Assembly (NCBI RefSeq): GCF_011320115.1
Contig: NZ_JAANOZ010000012.1
Coordinates: 1 to 64,000 of the forward strand
Direction of reading: 5' to 3'
DNA length: 64,000 nucleotides
DNA from: Croceibacterium segetis
Lineage (GTDB): Bacteria > Pseudomonadota > Alphaproteobacteria > Sphingomonadales > Sphingomonadaceae
Shown piece by piece: positions 7,071-47,836 of the stretch (positions are counted from its first letter, which is position 1; every line of letters starts with the position of its first letter). A model generated the notes under the pieces. The model worked only from the letters and a program-made list of their open reading frames with translations, was not told the DNA's origin and did no database searches. Made by a program: the position numbers and the translations under genes.

Positions 7071-7906
7071 GGTGCTGTCAGTCTAATCGCAACTCGTCTC
7101 CGATCGGCGCAGCTGTGTCTTGATGGCGCATGGTTCATCCCATGAGGTTCTGCCACTCGGCCAGGGCGGCCGAGCGGCGGGTCTTGTAAGTCTGTCGATC
7201 GACGAGGTGGCGTTCAAGGTTGAAGTGGTTGTGGACGTTGGCATGGAGCGAGGCGAACTTCTGCAAGCTCTTCATCTGCCGGAACCGCAGCATCGCCCGC
7301 TCTCGTCGTCGGAACGGCAGGTGGCTGTTCTCCACCCGGTTGTTGGCCCAGCGGCCGACCTCCTGCTTGTCGGCGTTGCCGAGCTCGCTCATCGCGGCCT
7401 TGTACGAGCGCAGCCCATCGGTGGTAATCGTCTCGGGTGAGCCATGGCGCTTGAGCGCCTTCTTCATGAACGTCAGGGCGGCGGCCTTGTCCCTCGTCTT
7501 GGTGACGTAGCTCTCGAGCACCTCGCCTTCCTGGTCCACCGCTCGCCACAGGTAATGCATCTCGCCGTTCAACTTCACGTACATCTCGTCGAGGTGCCAG
7601 CGCCACTGCCTGAAGCCGCGCATCCGGCTCGCTCGCTGCCGGCGCACGTCTGCCGCGAACAGCGGACCGAACCTGTTCCACCAGTGGCGCACCGTCTCGT
7701 GGCAGATGTCGATGCCGCGCTCGGCCAGCAGGTCCTCGACATTGCGCAAGGACAGCGGGAAGCGGACGTACATCATCACCACCAGCCGGATCACTTCCGG
7801 CGAGGAGTTGAAGTAGCGGAACGGGCTCTGAGGCTTCTTCGGACGAGGCATTCCCCCGCCCTGCCCTCAACTCCTTACCAGCCGGTGCATTTGCTCTGAC
7901 AGAGCC
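7071..7906 (-). mobile_element. IS6-family insertion sequence, complete (836 bp)
   Basis: The element is bounded by GGTGCTGTCAG at 7071 and the complement of GGCTCTGTCAGAGCAAATGC at 7906, with one intact transposase gene. The flanking octamers (7063-7070 CGCAGCCG, 7907-7914 CGTCGGCA) do not match, so this copy did not simply insert here; deletion or homologous exchange with another copy is likely. It ends the ndh gene on one side and lies 32 bp from the stop of a sialidase-fold gene on the other. Confidence 0.9.
7135..7851 (-). CDS. IS6-family DDE transposase
   Basis: The 238-aa protein is full length for IS6 transposases. It has the N-terminal helix-turn-helix (SLRNVEDLLAERGIDICHETV) and a DDE core with WHLDEMYV (Asp88), TTDGLRSY (Asp145) and NRVENSH (probable Glu174), followed by FRRRERAMLRF. 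It belongs to the subgroup with the NNR-ENSH-PFRRRERAM motif. It should be active and able to act on the MITE ends in this window. Confidence 0.93.
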   Translation of the reverse strand: MPRPKKPQSPFRYFNSSPEVIRLVVMMYVRFPLSLRNVEDLLAERGIDICHETVRHWWNRFGPLFAADVRRQRASRMRGFRQWRWHLDEMYVKLNGEMHYLWRAVDQEGEVLESYVTKTRDKAAALTFMKKALKRHGSPETITTDGLRSYKAAMSELGNADKQEVGRWANNRVENSHLPFRRRERAMLRFRQMKSLQKFASLHANVHNHFNLERHLVDRQTYKTRRSAALAEWQNLMG

Positions 7907-36880: not shown

Positions 36881-36955
36881 GAAAGGCGGGGCCGTAGCCC
36901 CGCCCTTATTTGGTGCAGTCAAGCTGCTTGTTAACAGCTGGCTCGCGATTTCTGA
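36881..36955 (-). ncRNA. tracrRNA of the type II-C CRISPR-Cas9 system
   Basis: The minus strand starts at about 36955 with TCAGAAATCGCG-A-GCCAGC, which differs by only one base from the plus-strand CRISPR repeat over its first 17 bases. Further G-U-compatible pairing gives roughly 24 bp of duplex with a crRNA read from the minus strand. Next come a small hairpin GCAG-CTTGA-CTGC (36927-36915, the nexus) and the GC-rich terminator. A sigma-70 promoter with exact 17-bp spacing lies directly upstream. Length is about 75 nt. It diverges from cas9, whose start is 84 bp away. Confidence 0.88.
36885..36904 (-). terminator. Intrinsic terminator of the tracrRNA
   Basis: On the minus strand an 8-bp stem GGCGGGGC/TACG/GCCCCGCC is followed by TTTC. 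This is the usual 3' end structure of II-C tracrRNAs. The T-run is short. Confidence 0.75.
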
Positions 36956-36961
36956 GCGGTC

Positions 36962-36990
36962 ATAATACTGAACTTCCATCACAAAGTCAA
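36962..36990 (-). promoter_or_regulatory. Sigma-70-type promoter for the tracrRNA
   Basis: TTGACT (36990-36985) and TATTAT (36967-36962) are separated by exactly 17 bp on the minus strand. Initiation 5-9 bases downstream falls at the start of the anti-repeat. Of the 441-bp gap 36598-37038 this, the tracrRNA and the cas9 ribosome site explain the right half; the left half (36598-36880) shows nothing recognisable. Confidence 0.75.
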
Positions 36991-37038
36991 TTGCCGGAAC
37001 ACCCTCCGCTTGCCACAATGCCGGCAGGAGGACGCATC

Positions 37039-40000
37039 ATGAGACGACTTGGCCTCGATATCGGCACCAACAGCATCGGTTGGTGCTTGATCGAAGATGG
37101 CAGCCGGATTGTCGACGTTGGCGCGCGCATCTTCAGCGACGGACGGGACCCCAAGTCTGGCGCATCGCTGGCAGTAGATCGACGAGATGCGCGGGCAATG
37201 CGGCGCCGCCGGGACCGTTATCTCGGAAGACGCACAGCTTTTTTGAACGCGCTAATCGTGCACAAGTTCATGCCCGCCAACGCCGACCAGGCCAAGTTAA
37301 TTACCGAGCGCGATCCCTATGACCTGCGCAAGCGCGCACTAAACGAGCGGCTCGAGCCTTACGAGATCGGTCGCGCGCTGTTCCACCTTAACCAGAGGCG
37401 CGGTTTCAAATCTAACCGGAAGACCGATCGCAAGGGGAAGCCGGGCGAGGAAGGAAAGATCGCCAGCGGAGCCAAGGCGCTTGATCAGGCTATAGCCAAG
37501 GTGGGTGCCGACACCCTTGGGCAATTCCTCGCGAACCGCGAAGCCAAGCGTGTGCGGCTCGACAGCGAGAACCAGGAATACGATTTCTATCCGCAGCGGC
37601 GTCATATCGAATACGAGTTCGGTCGTATCTGGGAGGAGCAGGCGAAGCACCATCCCGTGCTTCTCACCGATACGGCACGGGCGGCGCTTCATCGCATCCT
37701 TTTCTTCCAGCGCCCGCTGAAGGAGCAGGAGGTCGGCTATTGCACGTTCGCGGGTTTGAGCGGCGTACCAGCCGACGAGCGGCGGTTGGCCAAAGCGCAC
37801 CCCCTGTTCCAGCAACGGCGGCTTTATGAAGAGGTCAACCAGCTCCGCATCGTCTCGGCCGGCGCGGCCGACCGGCCACTCACGCGCGATGAGCGCGATG
37901 CGCTGATCCTCAAACTCCAGGATAAGAAGAAGGTCAGTTTCCAGTCGCTGGCCAAGGTCATCGGGCTCCATGAAGACGAGCGCTTCAACAAGGAAAGCGA
38001 GAATCGCAAGGACTTGATCGGCGACGAAGTGCGGGCTGAGCTCAGCGACAGGAAGCGCTTCGACACACGCTGGCTGCATTTCGGCCTCGACGAGCAGCTG
38101 CGCGTACTCGACCGGCTGCAGAACGACGAGAGCCCGGAAACACTGCTCGCCTGGCTCAAGGCGGAATACGGGCTCGACGACGCGGCCGCCGAGACCGTCG
38201 CCAATGCCGACTTGCCGGAGGGTTATGGGCGCTTCGGGCTCACGGCAACAAGGCGCCTGCTCGATGCACTCCGCGCCGACGTCGTCACATACGACAAGGC
38301 AGCCGAGGCAGCCGGGTTCCATCACAGCGATCATCGTACCGGGGAGGTACTCGATCAGCTGCCTTACTACGGCGAAATCCTCACCCGCGAGATCGCGCCC
38401 GGCAAGGAAGAGTATGGCGATCCGCTCGAGCGGCGCTATGGCAAGATCACGAACCCCACCGTGCATATCGGCCTTCGCCAATTGGAGAAGCTGGTCAACG
38501 CCGTGATCGCCGTCCACGGCCGTCCGGACCAGATCGTGGTAGAGCTGGCGCGCGAATTGAAGCTCAATGAGAAGCAGAAAGACGAGCACAAGAAGCGCAT
38601 CAAACAGGAGACCGATGCAGCCATCGCGCGGGGCAAAAAGCTCGCCTCGGAAGGCTTCCTCGACACCGGCGCCAACCGAATGCTGCTCCGGCTTTGGGAG
38701 GACCTCAGTCCAGCCAACCCGCTCGACCGCCGCTGCCCCTATTGCGGCCAGCCAATTGGCATCCGCCAGCTTTTCTCCGGCGAAGCGGACGTCGACCACA
38801 TCATCCCCTATTCCCGCTCGCTCGATGACAGCGCAGGCAACAAGGTCGTCGCGCACCGCAGCTGCAATCGCGCCAAGGGCAACAAGACGCCTTGGGAACG
38901 CTGGGGCCATGATGAGGACCGCTGGGACACCATCAGCGCCCAAGTCGCCCGCCTACACAAGTCAAAACAGTGGCGCTTCGGACCCGACGCCCTGCGGCGA
39001 CTGGAGCGCGAGGGCGGCTTCCTCGCTCGCCAACTCACCGACACGCAGTACCTCTCGCGCATCGCGGGCAAGTATCTGCGCAGTCTCTATCCGACAGCAC
39101 AGGACGGCCGCGTGGATGTCATTCCGGGTCGTATGACCGCGATGCTGCGGCGGCTATGGGGCCTCAACAGCCTGTTGCCCGACCACAACTACGTCGAGAA
39201 TGAGCACAGCAACGCCCCGAAGAACCGGCTCGATCACCGTCACCATGCCATCGACGCGGCGGTGGCGGCGGTGACGACCCTTGATCTCATGCAGGAAATC
39301 GCCCACGCGGCCAGCCGAGCAGAAGATAAGGACCTCGACCGCCTGTTCGAGAACTTGCCGCAGCCGTGGGAAGGCTTCCGCGAGGAGCTGGGAGAAAAGC
39401 TGGCGCGCGTCACCGTCAGCCACAAGCCGGATCACGGACGTAAGAGTCGACCCTCGAAGGATCGCGACGTGACGGCAGGTCGCCTGCACAACGAAACCGC
39501 TTACGGTTTCACCGGCGAGTTCGCTGCGGATCGGAAGACGCCCATTGTCGTCCACCGCGTGCCGCTGATGAGCCTCAAGCCGGGCGACTTGACGGACCCA
39601 AGCCGCATTCCCGACGAAACGCTGCGCAACGCGCTCCGCGCCGCGACCCATGATCTTTCAGGTAAGGACTTCGAACAAGCGCTGGCTCGCTTTGCTCAGG
39701 AGCACCCTGTGTTCAAAGGAGTCCGGCGCGTGCGGGTGCGCGAGCCGCTCACGGTCATTCCGGTTCGCGACCGGACGGGCCGGGCCTACAAAGCCTACAA
39801 GGGCGATTCAAATGCGCGCTACGACGTGTGGCGCTTGCCCAATGGAAAATGGGTCCACGACATCGTTTCGATGTTCGACGCTCATCAGCCTGACGCCGCC
39901 GAGCGTCGCCCTCACCCCGCCGCCAAGAAGGTACTCAGCCTTCGCCAGAGCGATTTGCTGGCTGTCGAGCGCCACGGTGGGGCGATTGAAATACTGAGGG

Positions 40001-40203
40001 TCGTGAAGTTCTCGACCAATGGAAGCCTGGCGCTCGCGGCGGCCAATGAGGCTGGTGCCCTGAAAGCCCGCGATGCCGCCCCGGCCGACACGGACCCGTT
40101 CAAGTACGTTTACGCCACCGGTGGCAGCCTCAAGAAAATGAAAGCCCGCCAGGTCCGTATCGATCCGCTTGGCCGCGTGTTTGATTCCGGGCCGCGCGAG
40201 TAG
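37039..40203 (+). CDS. cas9: CRISPR-associated endonuclease Cas9, compact type II-C
   Basis: The ATG at 37039, preceded by AGGAGGA, gives 1054 aa. RuvC-I is MRRLGLDIGTNSIGW with Asp7; the arginine-rich bridge helix follows (RRDARAMRRRRDRYLGRR). RuvC-II is IVVELAREL with Glu502. The HNH domain has CPYCG, DVDHIIPYSRS with His587, and HRSCNRAKGNK. RuvC-III is HRHHAIDAAVA with His735, His736 and Asp739. The C-terminal PAM-interacting region ends RIDPLGRVFDSG. All catalytic residues are present and the frame is open, so both strands of a target should be cut. Size and cas9-cas1-cas2 order without csn2 or cas4 place it in subtype II-C. Confidence 0.97.
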   Translation: MRRLGLDIGTNSIGWCLIEDGSRIVDVGARIFSDGRDPKSGASLAVDRRDARAMRRRRDRYLGRRTAFLNALIVHKFMPANADQAKLITERDPYDLRKRALNERLEPYEIGRALFHLNQRRGFKSNRKTDRKGKPGEEGKIASGAKALDQAIAKVGADTLGQFLANREAKRVRLDSENQEYDFYPQRRHIEYEFGRIWEEQAKHHPVLLTDTARAALHRILFFQRPLKEQEVGYCTFAGLSGVPADERRLAKAHPLFQQRRLYEEVNQLRIVSAGAADRPLTRDERDALILKLQDKKKVSFQSLAKVIGLHEDERFNKESENRKDLIGDEVRAELSDRKRFDTRWLHFGLDEQLRVLDRLQNDESPETLLAWLKAEYGLDDAAAETVANADLPEGYGRFGLTATRRLLDALRADVVTYDKAAEAAGFHHSDHRTGEVLDQLPYYGEILTREIAPGKEEYGDPLERRYGKITNPTVHIGLRQLEKLVNAVIAVHGRPDQIVVELARELKLNEKQKDEHKKRIKQETDAAIARGKKLASEGFLDTGANRMLLRLWEDLSPANPLDRRCPYCGQPIGIRQLFSGEADVDHIIPYSRSLDDSAGNKVVAHRSCNRAKGNKTPWERWGHDEDRWDTISAQVARLHKSKQWRFGPDALRRLEREGGFLARQLTDTQYLSRIAGKYLRSLYPTAQDGRVDVIPGRMTAMLRRLWGLNSLLPDHNYVENEHSNAPKNRLDHRHHAIDAAVAAVTTLDLMQEIAHAASRAEDKDLDRLFENLPQPWEGFREELGEKLARVTVSHKPDHGRKSRPSKDRDVTAGRLHNETAYGFTGEFAADRKTPIVVHRVPLMSLKPGDLTDPSRIPDETLRNALRAATHDLSGKDFEQALARFAQEHPVFKGVRRVRVREPLTVIPVRDRTGRAYKAYKGDSNARYDVWRLPNGKWVHDIVSMFDAHQPDAAERRPHPAAKKVLSLRQSDLLAVERHGGAIEILRVVKFSTNGSLALAAANEAGALKARDAAPADTDPFKYVYATGGSLKKMKARQVRIDPLGRVFDSGPRE

Positions 40204-40217
40204 CTGGAGCGCGCGGG

Positions 40218-41151
40218 ATGGACCGGATCGTCGATATCGCCACTGACGGCCAGCACCTGTCCATCCATCGAGGGTTCCTGATCGTCGAGCGCGAGCGCGA
40301 GGAGATCGGCAGGGTCGCGCTCGATGACATTCATGCCGTCATCGTCCACGCCCGTGGCGCCACCTGCAGCCAATCTGGTCGCCGGCCTTGGCGAACGAGG
40401 CGCGCCAATCGTGTTCTGCGGCTCGAACCATTCGCCGATCGCGGTGACGCTGCCGCTTGAAGGCCACCATGCCCAGAACGCGCGGATGCAGGCCCAGCTC
40501 GCCGCTTCCAGACCTCTAGTAAAACAGCTCTGGCGCCGGATCGTTGGCGCCAAGATCGAAATGCAAGGATCGCTGCTGGCCGCGCGCGGCATCGCCGGCG
40601 CCGAGGCGTTCCCGTTCATGGCGCGCCGGGTCAGCTCGGGCGACAAGGAGAATCTGGAGGCCCAAGCGGCACGGCGGTATTGGCCGCTGCTGATGGGCCT
40701 GGACTTCCGGCGCGATCGTGACGCGGACGGCGTCAACTCGCTTCTTAACTACGGCTATGCCATCATGCGCGCGACCTGCACCCGGGCCGTTGTGGCCGCG
40801 GGCCTGCATCCCACCCTCGGCATCCAGCATTCCAATCGCGGGAATGCCTTCGCCCTCGCCGACGATCTGGTCCAGCCCTTTCGCCCGCTCGTCGATGCAC
40901 TTGCCCGGAACATGGTATACGAAGGAATCGAAGCGCTCGATCCGCCAGCCAAGAGCCGGTTCGCGCGGCTGATTGCCTTCGATCTCAGAATTGCGGGCGA
41001 AGTTTCGCCGGTATCGGTCGCCGCGGCGCGCCTCGCACAATCGCTCGCCCGCGCGTTCGAAACCGGCCATGCCGACCTGATATTATTCGAGCCACCCACT
41101 CCCATCGAATGGGCCGCTGCAGGCCGTCTCGATGACAGCAGCGAGCCATGA
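40218..41151 (+). pseudogene. cas1: CRISPR integrase Cas1, frameshifted
   Basis: The N-terminus (MDRIVDIATDGQHLSIHRGFLI, ALDDIHAVIVHARGATCS) reads in one frame to about 40370. From GCC at 40369 the protein continues in another frame: ANLVAGLGERGAPIVFCG, HHAQNARMQAQLAASRPL and onward to 41151. Family spacing suggests two bases are missing at 40368-40371. Beyond the break the catalytic residues look intact: LEAQAARRYW (Glu), GIQHSN (His) and ALADDL (Asp). No slippery heptamer is visible at the break. Cas1 is required for spacer acquisition, so adaptation is probably lost. Its end overlaps cas2 by 4 bp. Confidence 0.85.
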
Positions 41152-41495
41152 TCGCGAGCGATCTGGCTCATTTGAGCGGATATCGGCTGATGTGGATCTT
41201 CGTGATGTTCGACCTGCCCGTGAGCACCAAGAAGCAGATGCGCGACGCCGCAAAGTTTCGCGAATTCCTGCTCGATGAAGGTTTCGAGATGAGCCAGTTC
41301 TCGGTCTATGCTAGATTCTGCAACGGCAAGGTCGCCTACAAGTCCTACCTCAAGCGGATCGAGATGAGACTGCCGGAAAAGGGCTAGGTCCATGTGCTCA
41401 CGTTCACCGACCGACAGTATGAAAGCGTCGTCCGATTCGCGAGCCAGCGGCGCAAGCAGCCGCGCAGGAATCCCGACCAGCTCGCCATGTTCTAA
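41148..41495 (+). pseudogene. cas2: CRISPR protein Cas2 with an in-frame amber codon
   Basis: The ATG at 41148 begins a Cas2 reading MWIFVMFDLPVSTKKQ (metal-binding Asp in FDLPV) and MSQFSVYARFCNGK. It stops at TAG (41385-41387) after 79 residues. The same frame continues beyond with VHVLTFTDRQYESVVRF and RRNPDQLAMF before TAA at 41495, which is the normal Cas2 C-terminus. TAG replaces the codon usually encoding Lys in the G-K-VH-LTFTD motif, a single-base change. The lost part forms the last beta-strand used for Cas1-Cas2 assembly. Confidence 0.85.
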
Positions 41496-41566
41496 TTATA
41501 TCTGGCGGAATGTGCTGGCCGGATGTTCCGATTTCCTGTTTTTCACAGCAGGTTATCGGGCCATCC

Positions 41567-42327
41567 GGCCTAGCAGTTCAGAAATCGCGGGCCAACCGCA
41601 ACTATAACCACAGGCATATTCCCGGTGCCTGTGGCCTAGCAGTTCAGAAATCGCGGGCCAACCGCAACTGCTCCCCGTCATCGGTCGAAGCGGGGTGGGG
41701 CCTAGCAGTTCAGAAATCGCGGGCCAACCGCAACAAGCCATCCGAGGTCGACAGCCCATCGAGGGGCCTAGCAGTTCAGAAATCGCGGGCCAACCGCAAC
41801 CGCACAAGGACAAGCGAAATGACCCGCGCTGGCCTAGCAGTTCAGAAATCGCGGGCCAACCGCAACTCGATAAGCCGATGAAAGCACTGGACCTGCGGCC
41901 TAGCAGTTCAGAATCGCGGGCCAACCGCAACTGACGTTGGGCTTCCTCGATGCGCTTGCAGGGCCTAGCAGTTCAGAAATCGCGGGCCAACCGCAACTCA
42001 TGCCGGTGTCGGCCTTCTACGCGCTGTGGCCTAGCAGTTCAGAAATCGCGGGCCAACCGCAACCAATCCCTCAATCAGCCCTCGACGCCGCAGGGCCTAG
42101 CAGTTCAGAAATCGCGGGCCAACCGCAACGGCTTGTTGCTGCATGGCTGCGCTTGTTCAGGCCTAGCAGTTCAGAAATCGCGGGCCAACCGCAACCGGCA
42201 TCTATCGCATCTACAGGCTGAGTGCGGCCTAGCAGTTCAGAAATCGCGGGCCAACCGCAACGCGCATCTCAAGCAGACACGCCCCATGACAGGCCTAGCA
42301 ATTCAGAAGTCGCGGGCCAACCGTAAC
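41567..42327 (-). CRISPR. CRISPR array: 12 repeats of 36 bp, 11 spacers of 30 bp
   Basis: Repeats (plus strand beginning GGCCTAGCAGTTCAGAAATC and ending CCAACCGCAAC) start at 41567, 41633, 41699, 41765, 41831, 41897, 41962, 42028, 42094, 42160, 42226 and 42292. All spacers are exactly 30 bp. The repeat at 41897 is 35 bp, lacking one A of the AAA. The last repeat (42292-42327) has three substitutions. Pairing with the tracrRNA requires transcription on the minus strand, from the variant repeat toward cas2. In that direction the variant repeat is not the 3' handle of any spacer, which explains why it could drift. The 71 bp between cas2 and the first repeat (41496-41566) hold no gene. Confidence 0.97.
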
Positions 42328-42481: not shown

Positions 42482-43048
42482 TCAACCTTTTTCGGCCCAC
42501 CAAGCCGGCCAGCACACCTTGTCCGGGGTGCGAGTGTTCATCCAGACTTCTCGCTGCTCGTCCTTGGAGAGGGCCCCCGCGTCCAACCTGCTCAAAGCTG
42601 CCTCAACTATCCAGGGCTCAAGCTCCCAGCGGACCTTTTGCTTGTCGAGCGGGTACTTCTTGACCCCCAGGCCAAGGATCCGGAGCGCGCTTCCGACTCC
42701 GAATGAGCATATGATGATCCGCGTTATCTCGAGGTCTTTGTCAGGCTCGCGTTTCCCTCGCGCTTCCTCGATCGCCGCCAGGGATGCACGCGCTGCCGCA
42801 CTGTCTCCGGCCAGGCCCTTCTGCGTCAGCTGGAGAATGAACGCTTCCGCCGCCGTGATGCGCCGTTCGCGCCCATCCTCGCGGACCGTAACCATCTGTC
42901 CAAGAACACTGTCATAGGGAATCTGCCGGTGCCGGGTCCGAGGCCGGCCTTTCGGATTGCCGGACCGACCCTTCTTGAACTGCGTGGCAGGAGGTGGCCG
43001 CTTGTAACCGACACGCGGCCCCTCCTCAGGAATTTGCGGCTCGCTCAT
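42482..43048 (-). CDS. DUF5681-domain protein A
   Basis: The start at 43048 overlaps the stop of the next gene (ATGA) and gives 188 aa. The N-terminus carries the DUF5681 signature TQFKKGRSGNPKGRPRTRHR; a helical remainder follows (ITAAEAFILQLTQKGLAGDSAAARASLAAIEEA) and a tryptophan-rich tail. The domain occurs in small proteins near phage terminases and DNA methyltransferases; its role is unknown. It is the last gene of a three-gene minus-strand operon. Confidence 0.8.
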   Translation of the reverse strand: MSEPQIPEEGPRVGYKRPPPATQFKKGRSGNPKGRPRTRHRQIPYDSVLGQMVTVREDGRERRITAAEAFILQLTQKGLAGDSAAARASLAAIEEARGKREPDKDLEITRIIICSFGVGSALRILGLGVKKYPLDKQKVRWELEPWIVEAALSRLDAGALSKDEQREVWMNTRTPDKVCWPAWWAEKG

Positions 43049-43584
43049 GCCAACCGCCCGCGCGGCCATTTCAGGCGCTCCGGACTGCAGGTCAGCCGCT
43101 TGATGTCTTCAACATCCTTCTCGGTAAGCCGTCGGCGCCCCGGGCGGCTGAGAGCGGCCTGGGTCGCCCAGGTGGCAAGACGCAGGTGTGTGCTCCAGTA
43201 ACCGCCGGAATCTTCGGTCTTGTCGAGAGTCGCGATCCCCAGAATGCGCATGGCTTCGTCGGCGTTGTCAGCATCGTGCTCGACTTCCATCGTCAGGGCG
43301 CGGGACTTGGGAGGATTGAGCTTAGCGAGCGCCGCCTCTCGCTTCTCGATCATCTTGAGGACCTGGCGGATCGCCATCCGGCTGCCCTTGAGCGCCGCCT
43401 GATAGGTCTGCAACTGCAGCGCCTCGTCGATGGTCAGTTCGCGCTCAACACCTCCCTGGGTGACAGTCAGCGTCTTGTCGAAGATGATGTCGAACGCCGA
43501 GACGTGCGGCCGGCGGGCCTTTGGCCGACCCTTGGGGTTTCCAGACTGGCCCTTCGAGAACCTGGTGTGGCCGCCCCTGCTCAT
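43045..43584 (-). CDS. DUF5681-domain protein B
   Basis: This 179-aa protein has the same N-terminal signature (TRFSKGQSGNPKGRPKARRP) and the same helical order as protein A (LTIDEALQLQTYQAALKGSRMAIRQVLKMIEKREAAL). The two are paralogues in tandem, joined to each other and to the methyltransferase by 4-bp overlaps, so all three are translated together. Basic N-termini suggest nucleic-acid contact, which is inference. Confidence 0.8.
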   Translation of the reverse strand: MSRGGHTRFSKGQSGNPKGRPKARRPHVSAFDIIFDKTLTVTQGGVERELTIDEALQLQTYQAALKGSRMAIRQVLKMIEKREAALAKLNPPKSRALTMEVEHDADNADEAMRILGIATLDKTEDSGGYWSTHLRLATWATQAALSRPGRRRLTEKDVEDIKRLTCSPERLKWPRGRLA

Positions 43585-44885
43585 GCCGCGGCCTCCTCGC
43601 TCGCGCGATGAACCAGCTGCGGCTCCTTGCCGGTGATCTCCGACCAGCGGGTCATCGCGACGTCGACATACGCCGGATCGATATCGAGCCCGCGGAAGTG
43701 GCGGCCGACCCTCTCGGCAGCGATCAGGCTGGTGCCGGAGCCAAGGAAGATGTCGAGCACCAGCTCACCCTGACGGGTGACGTCGCAGATCGCATCGGCG
43801 ACCATGGCAACTGGCTTCACGGTCGGATGCAGCGCCAGATCCTCGCGTCGACTTCCCTTGAGCGAGTTGACCGAGGCGTAGTCCCACACGTTGGTCCGGT
43901 TGCGACCGTGCTTGCCCAGCTCGACCGCGTTGGTGTGCGAGGCATCCCCGACGCGGTAGACGAACACCATCTCGTGCTTGGAGCGATACAGGGAGCCCAT
44001 CCCGGCGTTGCTCTTGTTCCACACGCAGATGTTGAGCAGCTCGTCGTAGGTTCCACCCGCTGCAGCGGTCACATCATCCATGTGCCGCCAGTCCATGCAC
44101 ACGAAGTGGACGGCGCCGTTGCGCGAGACAGAAGCGCAAGCGCCGAGGGTGTCCTCGAGAAACTTGCGAAACTCGTCCGTCGTCATCTCGCCTGAGGCCA
44201 TGGCGAACTCGCGGTGGCGGCCCTTGGCGTTGACGTGGCCGTTGATCTTCACATTGTACGGGGGATCGAGGAAGGCGGCATCGATTCGGGCGCCTTCCCC
44301 GATCACCTCAGCCAGGAACGTTCGATCGCGCCCGTCGCCGCAGCCGATGCGGTGTTCGCCGAGCTGCCAGATATCGCCGGGACGCACGCGGGGATTGGCC
44401 GGCACCGCCGGAATGACCTCGTCATCCGGATCCGGGCTGCCGGCGAGCACCACATCGATCTCGCCGGGACTGAACCCGGTGAGCGAGAGGTCGATGTCGA
44501 TCTCGGGAAGCGAGAGATCGGCGAGCTCGAGCTTGAGGATCTCGACATCCCACCCGGCATTGAGCGCGATCTTGTTGTCCGCGAGCCGCAGCGCCTTCTT
44601 TTGCGCCTCGCTGAGACCCGCGAGTTCGATCACCGGGACTTCGGCGAGGCCCATCTCCTTCGCCGCGCGCAGTCGTCCGTGGCCGGCGATCAGGTTTCCT
44701 TCCGGATCGGCAAGGATCGGGTTGGTGAACCCGAACGCGCGGATCGAGGCGACGATCTGCTCGACCTGCCGCTTGGGGTGCGTGCGGGCATTGCGCGGGT
44801 CCGGGGTCAGGCTGTCGATCGGCTTGTAGACGACCGTGAGCGGGCGAGTGGCAGCTCCGGCTGCCAGGGCGGGAGGTGTGTCCAT
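43581..44885 (-). CDS. ParB-like plus beta-class DNA (N6-adenine or N4-cytosine) methyltransferase
   Basis: The ATG at 44885 gives 434 aa. Residues ~20-110 are a ParB/sulfiredoxin-like domain (LTPDPRNARTHPKRQVEQIVASI, NLIAGHGRLRAAKEMGL). The methyltransferase part has DPPY at 207-210 (motif IV) before DIFLGSGTSLIAAER (motif I), the order of beta-class enzymes such as CcrM. No restriction endonuclease gene is adjacent, so it is an orphan methylase, common on phages and mobile islands. The operon promoter lies in the divergent gap to DUF3489. Confidence 0.9.
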   Translation of the reverse strand: MDTPPALAAGAATRPLTVVYKPIDSLTPDPRNARTHPKRQVEQIVASIRAFGFTNPILADPEGNLIAGHGRLRAAKEMGLAEVPVIELAGLSEAQKKALRLADNKIALNAGWDVEILKLELADLSLPEIDIDLSLTGFSPGEIDVVLAGSPDPDDEVIPAVPANPRVRPGDIWQLGEHRIGCGDGRDRTFLAEVIGEGARIDAAFLDPPYNVKINGHVNAKGRHREFAMASGEMTTDEFRKFLEDTLGACASVSRNGAVHFVCMDWRHMDDVTAAAGGTYDELLNICVWNKSNAGMGSLYRSKHEMVFVYRVGDASHTNAVELGKHGRNRTNVWDYASVNSLKGSRREDLALHPTVKPVAMVADAICDVTRQGELVLDIFLGSGTSLIAAERVGRHFRGLDIDPAYVDVAMTRWSEITGKEPQLVHRASEEAAA

Positions 44886-44974
44886 TCGAGAACAATAGTG
44901 GACCGCGACACCCCGAATAACCCTTAGACCCCCCGCGGCGGGGGAAAAACCCGGGACAGCGCGATTGCACTGGA

Positions 44975-44988
44975 CTGTCGGCCGACAG
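44975..44988. promoter_or_regulatory. 14-bp perfect palindrome CTGTCGGCCGACAG between divergent operons
   Basis: The palindrome lies in the 189-bp gap between the methyltransferase operon and the DUF3489-DUF2924-recombinase operon. A second hairpin-forming stretch (CCCCCG-CGG-CGGGGG, 44930-44944) lies nearer the methyltransferase start. It could be an operator for both units; no cognate regulator was seen. Confidence 0.4.
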
Positions 44989-45074
44989 CGAGCATTGCTG
45001 TTCCACGCCCGGCGAGCCGGGCTCGCGCCGGTAGCGGCGGCCATTCCGGCACCGCCTGAACCGGAAGAACCACG

Positions 45075-45374
45075 ATGACACAAACCACCACAGCGAAGCG
45101 CGCTCGCCGCATGGCGCGCGAGCCCAAGACCGACGCGCAAAATATTTCCAGCAAGGCATCGGCGAAGAAGCCGGGTCCCTCTCGGCTCCATCAGCTCGAG
45201 GCTCTGCTCACGCGGGAAACCGGAGCTACCATCGCCGAGATGGTCGAGGCCACCGGCTGGCAGCCCCATTCGGTGCGCGGAGCGATGGCAGGAGCGCTCA
45301 AGAAGCGCGGCCTCGCGATCACCTCGGAAAAGCTCGACGGGGTGCGCCGCTATCGCGGGAGCCGGGCGGCATGA
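45075..45374 (+). CDS. DUF3489-domain protein
   Basis: The 99-aa product has a basic N-terminus and the DUF3489 helix-turn-helix-like domain: SRLHQLEALLTRETGATIAEMVEATGWQPHSVRGAMAGALKK. It is the first gene of a conserved three-gene set with DUF2924 and a large serine recombinase, each overlapping the next by 4 bp. It probably binds DNA, either as a regulator of the set or as a recombination cofactor. Confidence 0.88.
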   Translation: MTQTTTAKRARRMAREPKTDAQNISSKASAKKPGPSRLHQLEALLTRETGATIAEMVEATGWQPHSVRGAMAGALKKRGLAITSEKLDGVRRYRGSRAA

Positions 45375-45781
45375 GCGGCGACAGTATCGAGCAGCTCGTT
45401 GCCGAGATCGGGGCGATGGACCTCGAGCAACTGCGCGAACTCTGGAGGCGGCGCTACGGCGCCCCTCCCCCGCTGCGCTCAGTACCGATCATGCAAATGA
45501 TGCTCGCCTGGCGCGTTCAGGCCGAAGCATTCGGCGGGCTCGACCGGGAAACCCGGCGCGCGCTGGTCCGAACGGGTGCGACCGAGGCCGAGGGCAAGCA
45601 CCTCGGCCATGGCGCCATCCTCAGCCGCACCTGGCAGGGGCGCAAGGTCGAGGTGATCGTCGAGGAGCAGGGGTTCCGCTGGCAGGATCGGCTTTATCCG
45701 AGCCTGTCGGCGGCGGCGACCGCGATCGCGGGCAGCCGCTGGAACGGGCCTCGCTTCTTCGGCCTGAGAGACGCCGCATGA
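45371..45781 (+). CDS. DUF2924-domain protein
   Basis: This 136-aa protein shows the DUF2924 pattern (MDLEQLRELWRRRYGAPPP, IMQMMLAWRVQAEAFGGL, GAILSRTWQGRKVEVIVEEQGFRWQDRLYPSLSAAATAIAGSRWNGPRFFGL). The C-terminal SLSAAATAI-GSRWNGPRFFGL block is found fused or next to serine recombinases in alphaproteobacteria. The fixed context suggests a partner of the recombinase encoded downstream. Confidence 0.9.
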   Translation: MSGDSIEQLVAEIGAMDLEQLRELWRRRYGAPPPLRSVPIMQMMLAWRVQAEAFGGLDRETRRALVRTGATEAEGKHLGHGAILSRTWQGRKVEVIVEEQGFRWQDRLYPSLSAAATAIAGSRWNGPRFFGLRDAA

Positions 45782-47352
45782 CGGTCAAGACCATCCGCTG
45801 CGCGATCTATACGCGCAAGAGCTCCGACGAAGGCTTGGACCAGTCGTTCAACTCGCTCGATGCCCAGCGCGAAGCCGGTGAGGCCTACGTCAAGAGTCAG
45901 GCCAGCGAAGGCTGGACCGTGATCCCTGCGCTCTACGATGACGGCGGGTTCTCGGGCGGGACCATGGAGCGCCCCGGTCTGCAGCGTCTCCTCGCCGATA
46001 TCGAGGCGGGGCTGGTCGACGTCGTAGTGGTCTACAAGATCGACCGCCTGACGCGCTCGCTGTCGGACTTTTCGCGCATCGTCGAGGTGTTCGAGAAGGC
46101 GGGGGCGAGCTTCGTCTCGGTCACGCAGTCGTTCAACACCACCAACTCGATGGGCCGGCTGATGCTCAACGTGCTGCTCTCGTTCGCCCAGTTCGAGCGC
46201 GAGGTCACTGGCGAGCGCATCCGTGACAAGATCGCTGCCTCGAAGGCCAAGGGCATGTGGATGGGCGGGACACTGCCTCTCGGCTACGATCTTCCAGCAG
46301 CGGGCACGCGGACGCTGCAAGTGAACAAGAGCGAAGCGGCGACGGTCCGGCATATCTTCGCTCGCTATCTCGAGCTCGGCTCGGTCCACGCCCTGCAGCG
46401 CGAACTCGCCGATCAGGGTATCCGTCCCAAGCAGCGGGTGACCGCGAACGGCAAAACCCTGGGCGGCGACGCCTTCAGCCGCGGGGCGCTGTTCCACCTT
46501 CTGCGGAACCGCATCTACCTTGGGCAGATCGTGCATCGCGAGGCGGTCCACCAGGGCGAGCACGAGGCCATCGTCGACGAGGACCTGTTCAAGCGCGTGC
46601 AGCGGATACTGGATGGCAATGCCCGTCGGCATCGCGCCGAGGCAGAGCACCGCATCGCCAGGGCGCCTCTCACCGGCAAGTTGTTCGACGCCACCGGCGA
46701 ACCGATGTGCCCGACCTTCTCGCGCGGCAAGTCGGGGCGGAGCTATCGCTATTACGTCTCCGCTTCGCTGCAGCAAGGCGCCGCTTCATCCGATGGCGGC
46801 GTGATCCGACGCCTTTCTGCGCAAGCCATCGAGCGAGTGGTCACCGAGGTCGCCGAACGTTTGCTCGACACCAGCGAACGGCAGCTCGACAAGATCATGG
46901 CCGTCCGGCTCGTCAGCGATGGGCTCGTAGTCGATCTCCCCGGCGGTCGCGCTGCCGATCTCGGTCTTCGACTCAGCGATGAAGAGACAATCGTTCACGC
47001 CGCCAGCAAGGTGGTCCGCATCCATGTGCCGCTTGCGCTGCCGCTCCGCGGAGGACGACCGCTGGTACTCACTGGTGCAACGAGAAGCGCCAGGCCTGAT
47101 CCAGCCTTGATCACGGCGCTGCGAAAGGCGCATCGGATGCTCGAACGCGAGGGCGGCATGCCAGTCGTGAAGAGTTCACCGCTCTCGCTTTACGATCGCC
47201 AGATCTTGCGGCTCGCCTTTCTTGCTCCCGAACTCCAGCGCGACATACTTGCCGGTCGGCAGCCGCCGATGCTCAATCTGGAAAAGCTCAAATCGATTGC
47301 CATTCCGCTCGCCTGGAACGGGCAGAAAGCGGCCCTGGGATGGCCGACATGA
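45778..47352 (+). CDS. Large serine recombinase
   Basis: The 524-aa enzyme has an N-terminal resolvase domain (IRCAIYTRKSSDEGL with probable catalytic Ser15, VVVYKIDRLTRSLSDF, FAQFEREVTGERIRDKIA). A recombinase domain follows (GTLPLGYDL, VRHIFARYLELGSV, FHLLRNRIYLGQIVHR) and a zinc-ribbon-like/helical C-terminus. Large serine recombinases move integrative elements; this one lies 393 bp from a tRNA-Ser gene, with an array of short repeats in between, so it may define the right edge of the island. Confidence 0.92.
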   Translation: MTVKTIRCAIYTRKSSDEGLDQSFNSLDAQREAGEAYVKSQASEGWTVIPALYDDGGFSGGTMERPGLQRLLADIEAGLVDVVVVYKIDRLTRSLSDFSRIVEVFEKAGASFVSVTQSFNTTNSMGRLMLNVLLSFAQFEREVTGERIRDKIAASKAKGMWMGGTLPLGYDLPAAGTRTLQVNKSEAATVRHIFARYLELGSVHALQRELADQGIRPKQRVTANGKTLGGDAFSRGALFHLLRNRIYLGQIVHREAVHQGEHEAIVDEDLFKRVQRILDGNARRHRAEAEHRIARAPLTGKLFDATGEPMCPTFSRGKSGRSYRYYVSASLQQGAASSDGGVIRRLSAQAIERVVTEVAERLLDTSERQLDKIMAVRLVSDGLVVDLPGGRAADLGLRLSDEETIVHAASKVVRIHVPLALPLRGGRPLVLTGATRSARPDPALITALRKAHRMLEREGGMPVVKSSPLSLYDRQILRLAFLAPELQRDILAGRQPPMLNLEKLKSIAIPLAWNGQKAALGWPT

Positions 47353-47745: not shown

Positions 47746-47836
47746 TGGCGGAGCGGGTGGGATTCGAACCCACGATACGCTTTTGGCGTATACACACTTT
47801 CCAGGCGTGCGCCTTCGACCACTCGGCCACCGCTCC
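47746..47836 (-). tRNA. tRNA-Ser(GGA)
   Basis: The minus strand folds as a class II tRNA: acceptor GGAGCGG/CCGCTCC, D-arm GCCGAGTGG, anticodon loop CTGGAAA (anticodon GGA), a long variable arm ATACGC...GCGTAT, T-arm GGTTCGAATCC, discriminator G and an encoded CCA (47748-47746). It marks the boundary between the recombinase island and core genes. Confidence 0.97.

What the first reader, a model, noticed from the sequence alone, without database searches (positions are those of the whole stretch)
40218..41495. Both spacer-acquisition genes of the II-C system are broken while cas9, tracrRNA and array are intact
cas1 switches frame at about 40368-40371 (family spacing suggests a 2-base loss), and cas2 has a TAG at 41385-41387 with the normal C-terminus continuing in frame beyond it. 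Catalytic residues of both proteins remain, so the lesions look recent. Cas9 has all RuvC and HNH residues. The system should still cut but not learn: a frozen immunity locus. Two independent lesions make a single sequencing error an unlikely full explanation.
Basis: partly seen in the sequence, partly recalled or inferred. Interest (0 to 1): 0.75.

Follow-up and report, generated by a model that had tools for sequence, protein, structure and literature searches.

The report
CRISPR-Cas9 locus with broken spacer-acquisition genes
A sphingomonad bacterium carries a CRISPR-Cas9 immune system whose cutting half looks intact but whose two "learning" genes, cas1 and cas2, are both wrecked, so it probably keeps old phage memories and cannot add new ones; this is a clear but ordinary case of gene decay with known precedents.

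Summary
Against 11 relatives in which both genes are complete and open, cas1 (40218-41151) changes frame at 40370/40371 (two bases short), and cas2 (41148-41495) has an in-frame TAG at 41385-41387 with 35 family-like residues beyond it. Cas9 keeps its seven RuvC/HNH catalytic residues and ordinary constraint. A tracrRNA gene with promoter and terminator hairpin, the leader and a 12-repeat array are present. The genome holds no second Cas1. I add a third lesion that contradicts "catalytic residues remain": the Cas1 metal-binding Glu (SpyCas1 E220; Glu in all 37 relatives compared) is Gln (CAG, 40873-40875). The frameshift separates Cas1 from its N-terminal part (β1) and the TAG removes the Cas2 C-terminal tail, two surfaces that pair to build the integrase. 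Thirteen nearby genes are intact, so a poor assembly is unlikely. One spacer matches uncultured phage DNA at 29/30. Best reading: a recently decayed adaptation module on a still plausible interference module. Of 52 sampled order genomes with such a Cas1, no other was found with both genes at fault. Retention of cas9 without cas1/cas2 is already described (Campylobacter coli clade 3), so interest is modest.

The parts
36882..36956 (-). tracrRNA gene: anti-repeat (36956-36930) followed by a GC hairpin and short T run (36907-36882)
   Evidence: Lies just upstream of cas9; sequence; same RNA at the same place in L003, L009, L012 and L014; duplex with the crRNA repeat -39.3 kcal/mol, not the strongest in the scan; folding z -3.9; the perfect 8-pair G-C stem was printed by the scan on the other strand.
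36962..36990 (-). sigma-70-like promoter of the tracrRNA, TTGACT-17-TATTAT
   Evidence: 10 of 12 consensus, expected 0.2 in shuffles of the region.
37039..40203 (+). cas9 (type II-C), intact
   Evidence: TIGR01865 597 bits; seven RuvC/HNH catalytic columns identical to 11 relatives; 12/456 departures at otherwise invariant columns, mean of relatives 11.3.
40218..41151 (+). cas1 pseudogene: frame A 40218-40370, frame B 40371-41151, two bases short at the junction
   Evidence: TIGR03639 (type II Cas1) 203 bits on the frame-B part.
40873..40875 (+). CAG (Gln) where 37/37 relatives have Glu: the Cas1 catalytic E220 position
   Evidence: solved type II-A Cas1 chains aligned; catalytic set E149, H205, D217, E220, R223 from PMC12216489.
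41148..41495 (+). cas2 pseudogene with in-frame TAG at 41385-41387; 79 of about 115 residues before the stop
41496..41566 (+). leader-like region between cas2 and the array, 71 bases
   Evidence: Similar length and a conserved array-proximal part in 15 relatives.
41567..42327 (-). CRISPR array: 12 repeats, 11 spacers of 30 nt; inferred to be transcribed from the minus strand
   Evidence: Repeat 6 (41897) lacks one A; the far repeat (42292) has three substitutions.
41932..41961 (-). spacer 6, matches a DNA-methyltransferase gene in uncultivated viral contigs at 29/30 (L048, L050) and 27/30 (L049)

Best explanation
A type II-C CRISPR-Cas locus whose adaptation module has decayed into two pseudogenes while the interference module is still in place. 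Shown from sequence: a frameshift, a nonsense codon and loss of a catalytic Glu in cas1-cas2; an intact Cas9 frame, tracrRNA gene, leader and repeats; no other Cas1 in the genome. Inferred: the remaining pieces cannot form an integrase. The Cas1 part that could be translated from 40324 lacks the N-terminal beta-1 strand, Cas2 lacks its C-terminal tail, and these two elements pair with each other in solved type II-A integrases. Hence no new spacers are added, while Cas9 with tracrRNA and crRNAs from 11 stored spacers should still cut matching phage DNA. Loss of constraint on cas1 is recent compared with the split from the nearest relative.
For: Lesions against complete relatives. E220-equivalent is Gln where 37/37 have Glu; catalytic role and dead variant from PMC12216489. 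Pairing of the Cas2 C-terminal beta-6 with Cas1 beta-1, and the essential role of the Cas2 C-terminus, from PMC12216489. cas1 departs at 7/167 otherwise invariant columns against a mean of 1.9, Poisson P about 0.003, while cas9 is ordinary (12 against 11.3). Single Cas1 and single Cas9 in the genome. tracrRNA and promoter. Thirteen nearby genes, 14.5 kb, read in one frame against congeners. Spacer 6 matches phage DNA.
Against: No expression, cutting or acquisition data. Cas2 shows no departures at its 67 otherwise invariant columns, and a second test (class-breaking changes) finds no significant excess in cas1 (3 against 2.2) or cas2 (2 against 1.2). Pairwise dN tests give no significant rate increase. 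Reads could not be examined, and no conspecific genome with the locus was found. Only one of the eight spacers scanned has a convincing viral match.
Confidence: 0.85

Rival explanations
1. Sequencing or assembly error: the frameshift and the TAG are not in the living genome.
For: Draft assembly of 42 contigs; reads are not available; repeat 6 also differs from the others by one A in a run.
Against: Three separate changes of different kinds (a short gap, a nonsense codon, a missense change at a catalytic site) fall in the two adjacent adaptation genes, while cas9 and 13 nearby genes, about 17.6 kb, show none. The extra departures at conserved Cas1 columns are also unexpected under error.
Confidence: 0.07
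2. Rescue: ribosomal frameshifting and stop read-through still give full-length Cas1 and Cas2.
For: Both frames of cas1 are open across the junction and the sequence beyond both lesions is still family-like.
Against: Complete relatives encode both proteins without any such event, and a rescued Cas1 would still have Gln at the metal-binding position, where the deep mutational scan reports substitutions as highly disfavoured.
Confidence: 0.03
3. Adaptation continues in trans, with Cas1-Cas2 from another system in the cell.
For: Trans use is known: a type VI-B array uses type II-C Cas1 in Flavobacterium columnare (PMC8092290). The leader is kept.
Against: No second Cas1 in the genome, 99.99% complete, and no second array with these repeats.
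Confidence: 0.03
4. The whole locus is dead: Cas9 is no longer expressed and the interference half simply has not yet picked up visible lesions.
For: Decay of cas1 looks recent, so an equally released cas9 might not yet show damage.
Against: cas9 is more than three times longer than cas1 and is still intact with ordinary constraint; tracrRNA and its promoter-like site are preserved.
Confidence: 0.15

Closest known systems
Complete type II-C loci of sphingomonads (L003, Sphingomicrobium MAG, Cas9 82% identical; L004; L005)
   Same: Order cas9-cas1-cas2-array, near-identical 36-nt repeats with 30-nt spacers, leader of about 71 nt; L003 has the same tracrRNA.
   Different: Their cas1 and cas2 are open and Cas1 has the catalytic Glu.
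Campylobacter coli clade 3 type II-C locus (PMC4607530)
   Same: cas9 kept without a working cas1/cas2 and no other cas genes elsewhere.
   Different: There the two genes are absent; here they are still present as pseudogenes.
Bacteroides fragilis truncated type I-B loci (PMC5704556)
   Same: Acquisition genes damaged, presumably after spacers were gained.
   Different: Type I-B, one large deletion that also removed effector genes.
G062 (L028), another sphingomonad II-C locus
   Same: Cas1 reading frame broken.
   Different: Break is in the C-terminal tail after the catalytic core, and cas2 is open.

Membership tests
type II-C CRISPR-Cas | Cas9 of the Csn1 family with RuvC and HNH domains | tested here: met
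   TIGR01865, 597 bits; HNH_4 and RuvC_III; catalytic columns
type II-C CRISPR-Cas | only cas9, cas1 and cas2; no csn2 or cas4 between cas9 and array | tested here: met
   ORFs 36910-41607; families
type II-C CRISPR-Cas | tracrRNA with anti-repeat | tested here: met
type II-C CRISPR-Cas | array opposite in transcription to cas genes, degenerate repeat at the transcription-proximal end (PMC4607530) | tested here: inconclusive
   Degenerate repeat at 42292 fits minus-strand transcription; transcription itself not measured
type II-C CRISPR-Cas | functional Cas1-Cas2 adaptation module | tested here: not met
   Frameshift, loss of catalytic Glu, nonsense codon. The locus is a type II-C system by descent, but a degenerate one
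type II-C CRISPR-Cas | RNA-guided DNA cleavage | not testable with these tools
   Needs an interference assay

The most novel reading that the evidence does not exclude
Loss of acquisition was favoured: keeping Cas9 and a fixed set of spacers while disabling Cas1-Cas2 is an adaptive end state (avoiding self-immunity, or Cas9 retained for a non-immune role), not simple drift.
Probability: 0.1. Interest if true: 0.5.

Novelty: new member of a known kind. Interest (0 to 1): 0.3.

Why it matters
It is a clean natural case of adaptation and interference being uncoupled in one type II-C locus, with cas1 and cas2 hit in parts that the literature says they need to bind each other and to catalyse integration. 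Strains of this species, if collected, would allow a direct test of whether a CRISPR array stays fixed after acquisition is lost and how long cas9 outlives it. As a discovery it is modest, because retention of cas9 without cas1/cas2 is already described.

Tried and rejected
Overall dN comparison of the window's cas1 and cas2 with sister genes gave no significant difference. The class-breaking substitution test gave no significant excess for cas1 or cas2. The array against the phage and plasmid collections gave only a chance hit and repeat-like hits. Eight viral-contig scans: spacer 1 had a 20-nt match that fails outside the pattern (9 mismatches in 30), spacer 6 matched, six others had none. 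Self-targeting: the best own-genome match outside the array is 20 nt at 42123-42142, 7 nt of repeat and 13 of spacer, judged chance. Rfam had no match to the tracrRNA. In-frame stops flagged in G009 and G408 are natural Cas1 ends; G585, also flagged, was not read. The duplex scan alone did not single out the tracrRNA, since GC-rich coding stretches score alike; conservation and position did.

Full report
What is there. The window is the first 64 kb of contig C4 of a 3.28-Mb, 42-contig genome, 99.99% complete. Its closest Cas9 relatives are mostly from sphingomonads. The locus reads tracrRNA (-), cas9 (+), cas1 (+), cas2 (+), leader, array. Cas9 scores 597 bits to the Csn1/Cas9 model, the frame-B part of Cas1 scores 203 bits to the type II Cas1 model, and the Cas2 part before its stop scores 50 bits to Cas2.

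The lesions. Cas1 begins in frame A at 40218 and continues after 40370 in another frame; the window is two bases short there against four relatives. Frame A ends at 40460 after 80 residues. cas2 carries TAG at 41385-41387 where the 11 relatives have Asp or Glu, and 35 family-like residues follow in frame. All 11 relatives from genome contigs in which both genes are complete are open. Among the 51 other genomes of the order with a matching Cas1 in my two samples (26, 38, 13 shared), the only other break seen is a C-terminal frameshift in G062 with cas2 open. cas2 was checked only in the loci, and Cas1 of the further genomes only by that tool's open-frame and stop columns (two of three flagged stops were read and are natural ends).

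A third lesion. The column that holds Glu in all 37 relatives, and that aligns to the Glu of 'MEPFRP' in solved type II-A Cas1 chains, is Gln in the window (CAG at 40873-40875). The literature lists E149, H205, D217, E220 and R223 as catalytic in SpyCas1, and uses H205A with E220A as the dead variant (PMC12216489). The equivalents of E149 and H205 are kept. His46 to Arg and Trp50 to Cys are further changes at columns invariant in the 11 close relatives, though not in the wider set of 37.

Strength of the decay signal. At columns invariant in the other ten close relatives, the window's Cas1 departs 7 times in 167; each relative departs 0-5 times, mean 1.9 (Poisson P about 0.003; this ignores differences in branch length). 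Cas9 departs 12 times in 456, mean of relatives 11.3; Cas2 departs 0 in 67. Overall dN on the window branch is not significantly raised for any of the three genes. I read this as recent loss of constraint, with cas1 showing more than cas2. The order of the three events is unknown.

Mechanism. In type II-A integrases the C-terminal β6 strand of Cas2 forms a sheet with β1 of Cas1, and the Cas2 C-terminus is essential (PMC12216489). In the window the cas2 stop removes the last 36 residues, and the Cas1 frame that could start at ATG 40324 lacks the N-terminal part that holds β1. Transfer of these type II-A facts to type II-C is inference. Even a read-through protein would lack the catalytic Glu.

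Interference side. The Cas9 RuvC and HNH residues are all present and identical to 11 relatives. On the minus strand before cas9 lies TTGACT-17-TATTAT, an anti-repeat, and a GC hairpin with a short T run; the same RNA is found at that place in four relatives. The array has 12 repeats and 11 spacers of 30 nt; relatives whose arrays are held to the end have about 13 to 52 repeats, which fits but does not prove a frozen array. The degenerate repeat is at the far end, as described for II-C (PMC4607530). Spacer 6 matches a phage-like DNA methyltransferase gene at 29/30 in two uncultivated viral contigs and 27/30 in a third. That gene motif may be widely conserved, so the match says 'phage-derived' more safely than it names a phage.

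Controls. The genome has one Cas1 and one Cas9 and one array of this repeat. Four congeners have no matching Cas1. Thirteen nearby genes (14.5 kb) align in one frame to congeners without stops, so a generally error-ridden assembly is unlikely. This was not a genome-wide survey.

Context. A large serine recombinase, a ParB/DNA-methylase gene and two DUF5681 genes lie between the array and a tRNA-Ser at 47746. Sequence to the right of that tRNA is shared with congeners, while the stretch to its left is not found there in the places read. The CRISPR locus may therefore sit in or beside a mobile island; this was not pursued.

Verdict. A real, doubly and indeed triply lesioned adaptation module beside a plausible interference module. 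It is a new instance of a known kind of decay; interest 0.3.

Noticed in passing
window 42482-47352: Two adjacent DUF5681 genes, a ParB_N/N6_N4 methylase gene and a large serine recombinase lie between the CRISPR array and tRNA-Ser (47746-47836); congeners share the right flank but not this stretch, which suggests a mobile island.
   Followed up: partly
L028 (G062), about 1351-2270: Another sphingomonad II-C cas1 has a C-terminal frameshift after the catalytic core, with cas2 open.
   Followed up: partly
window 41897-41931: Repeat 6 of the array is 35 nt, one A short, while 10 of the other 11 repeats are identical.
   Followed up: no
L048, L049, L050: Spacer 6 targets have 3' flanks AGGCGAC and GGGGCAA, a possible NGGNNA-like PAM from very few sites.
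   Followed up: no
L051 (Pseudosulfitobacter plasmid CP070878), 4001-4034: A lone 34-base stretch resembling the CRISPR repeat lies among IS66 genes; 37 plasmid records of this genus gave such a hit.
   Followed up: no
window 7135-7851: A transposase-like gene that resembles the IS6 family, by eye only.
   Followed up: no
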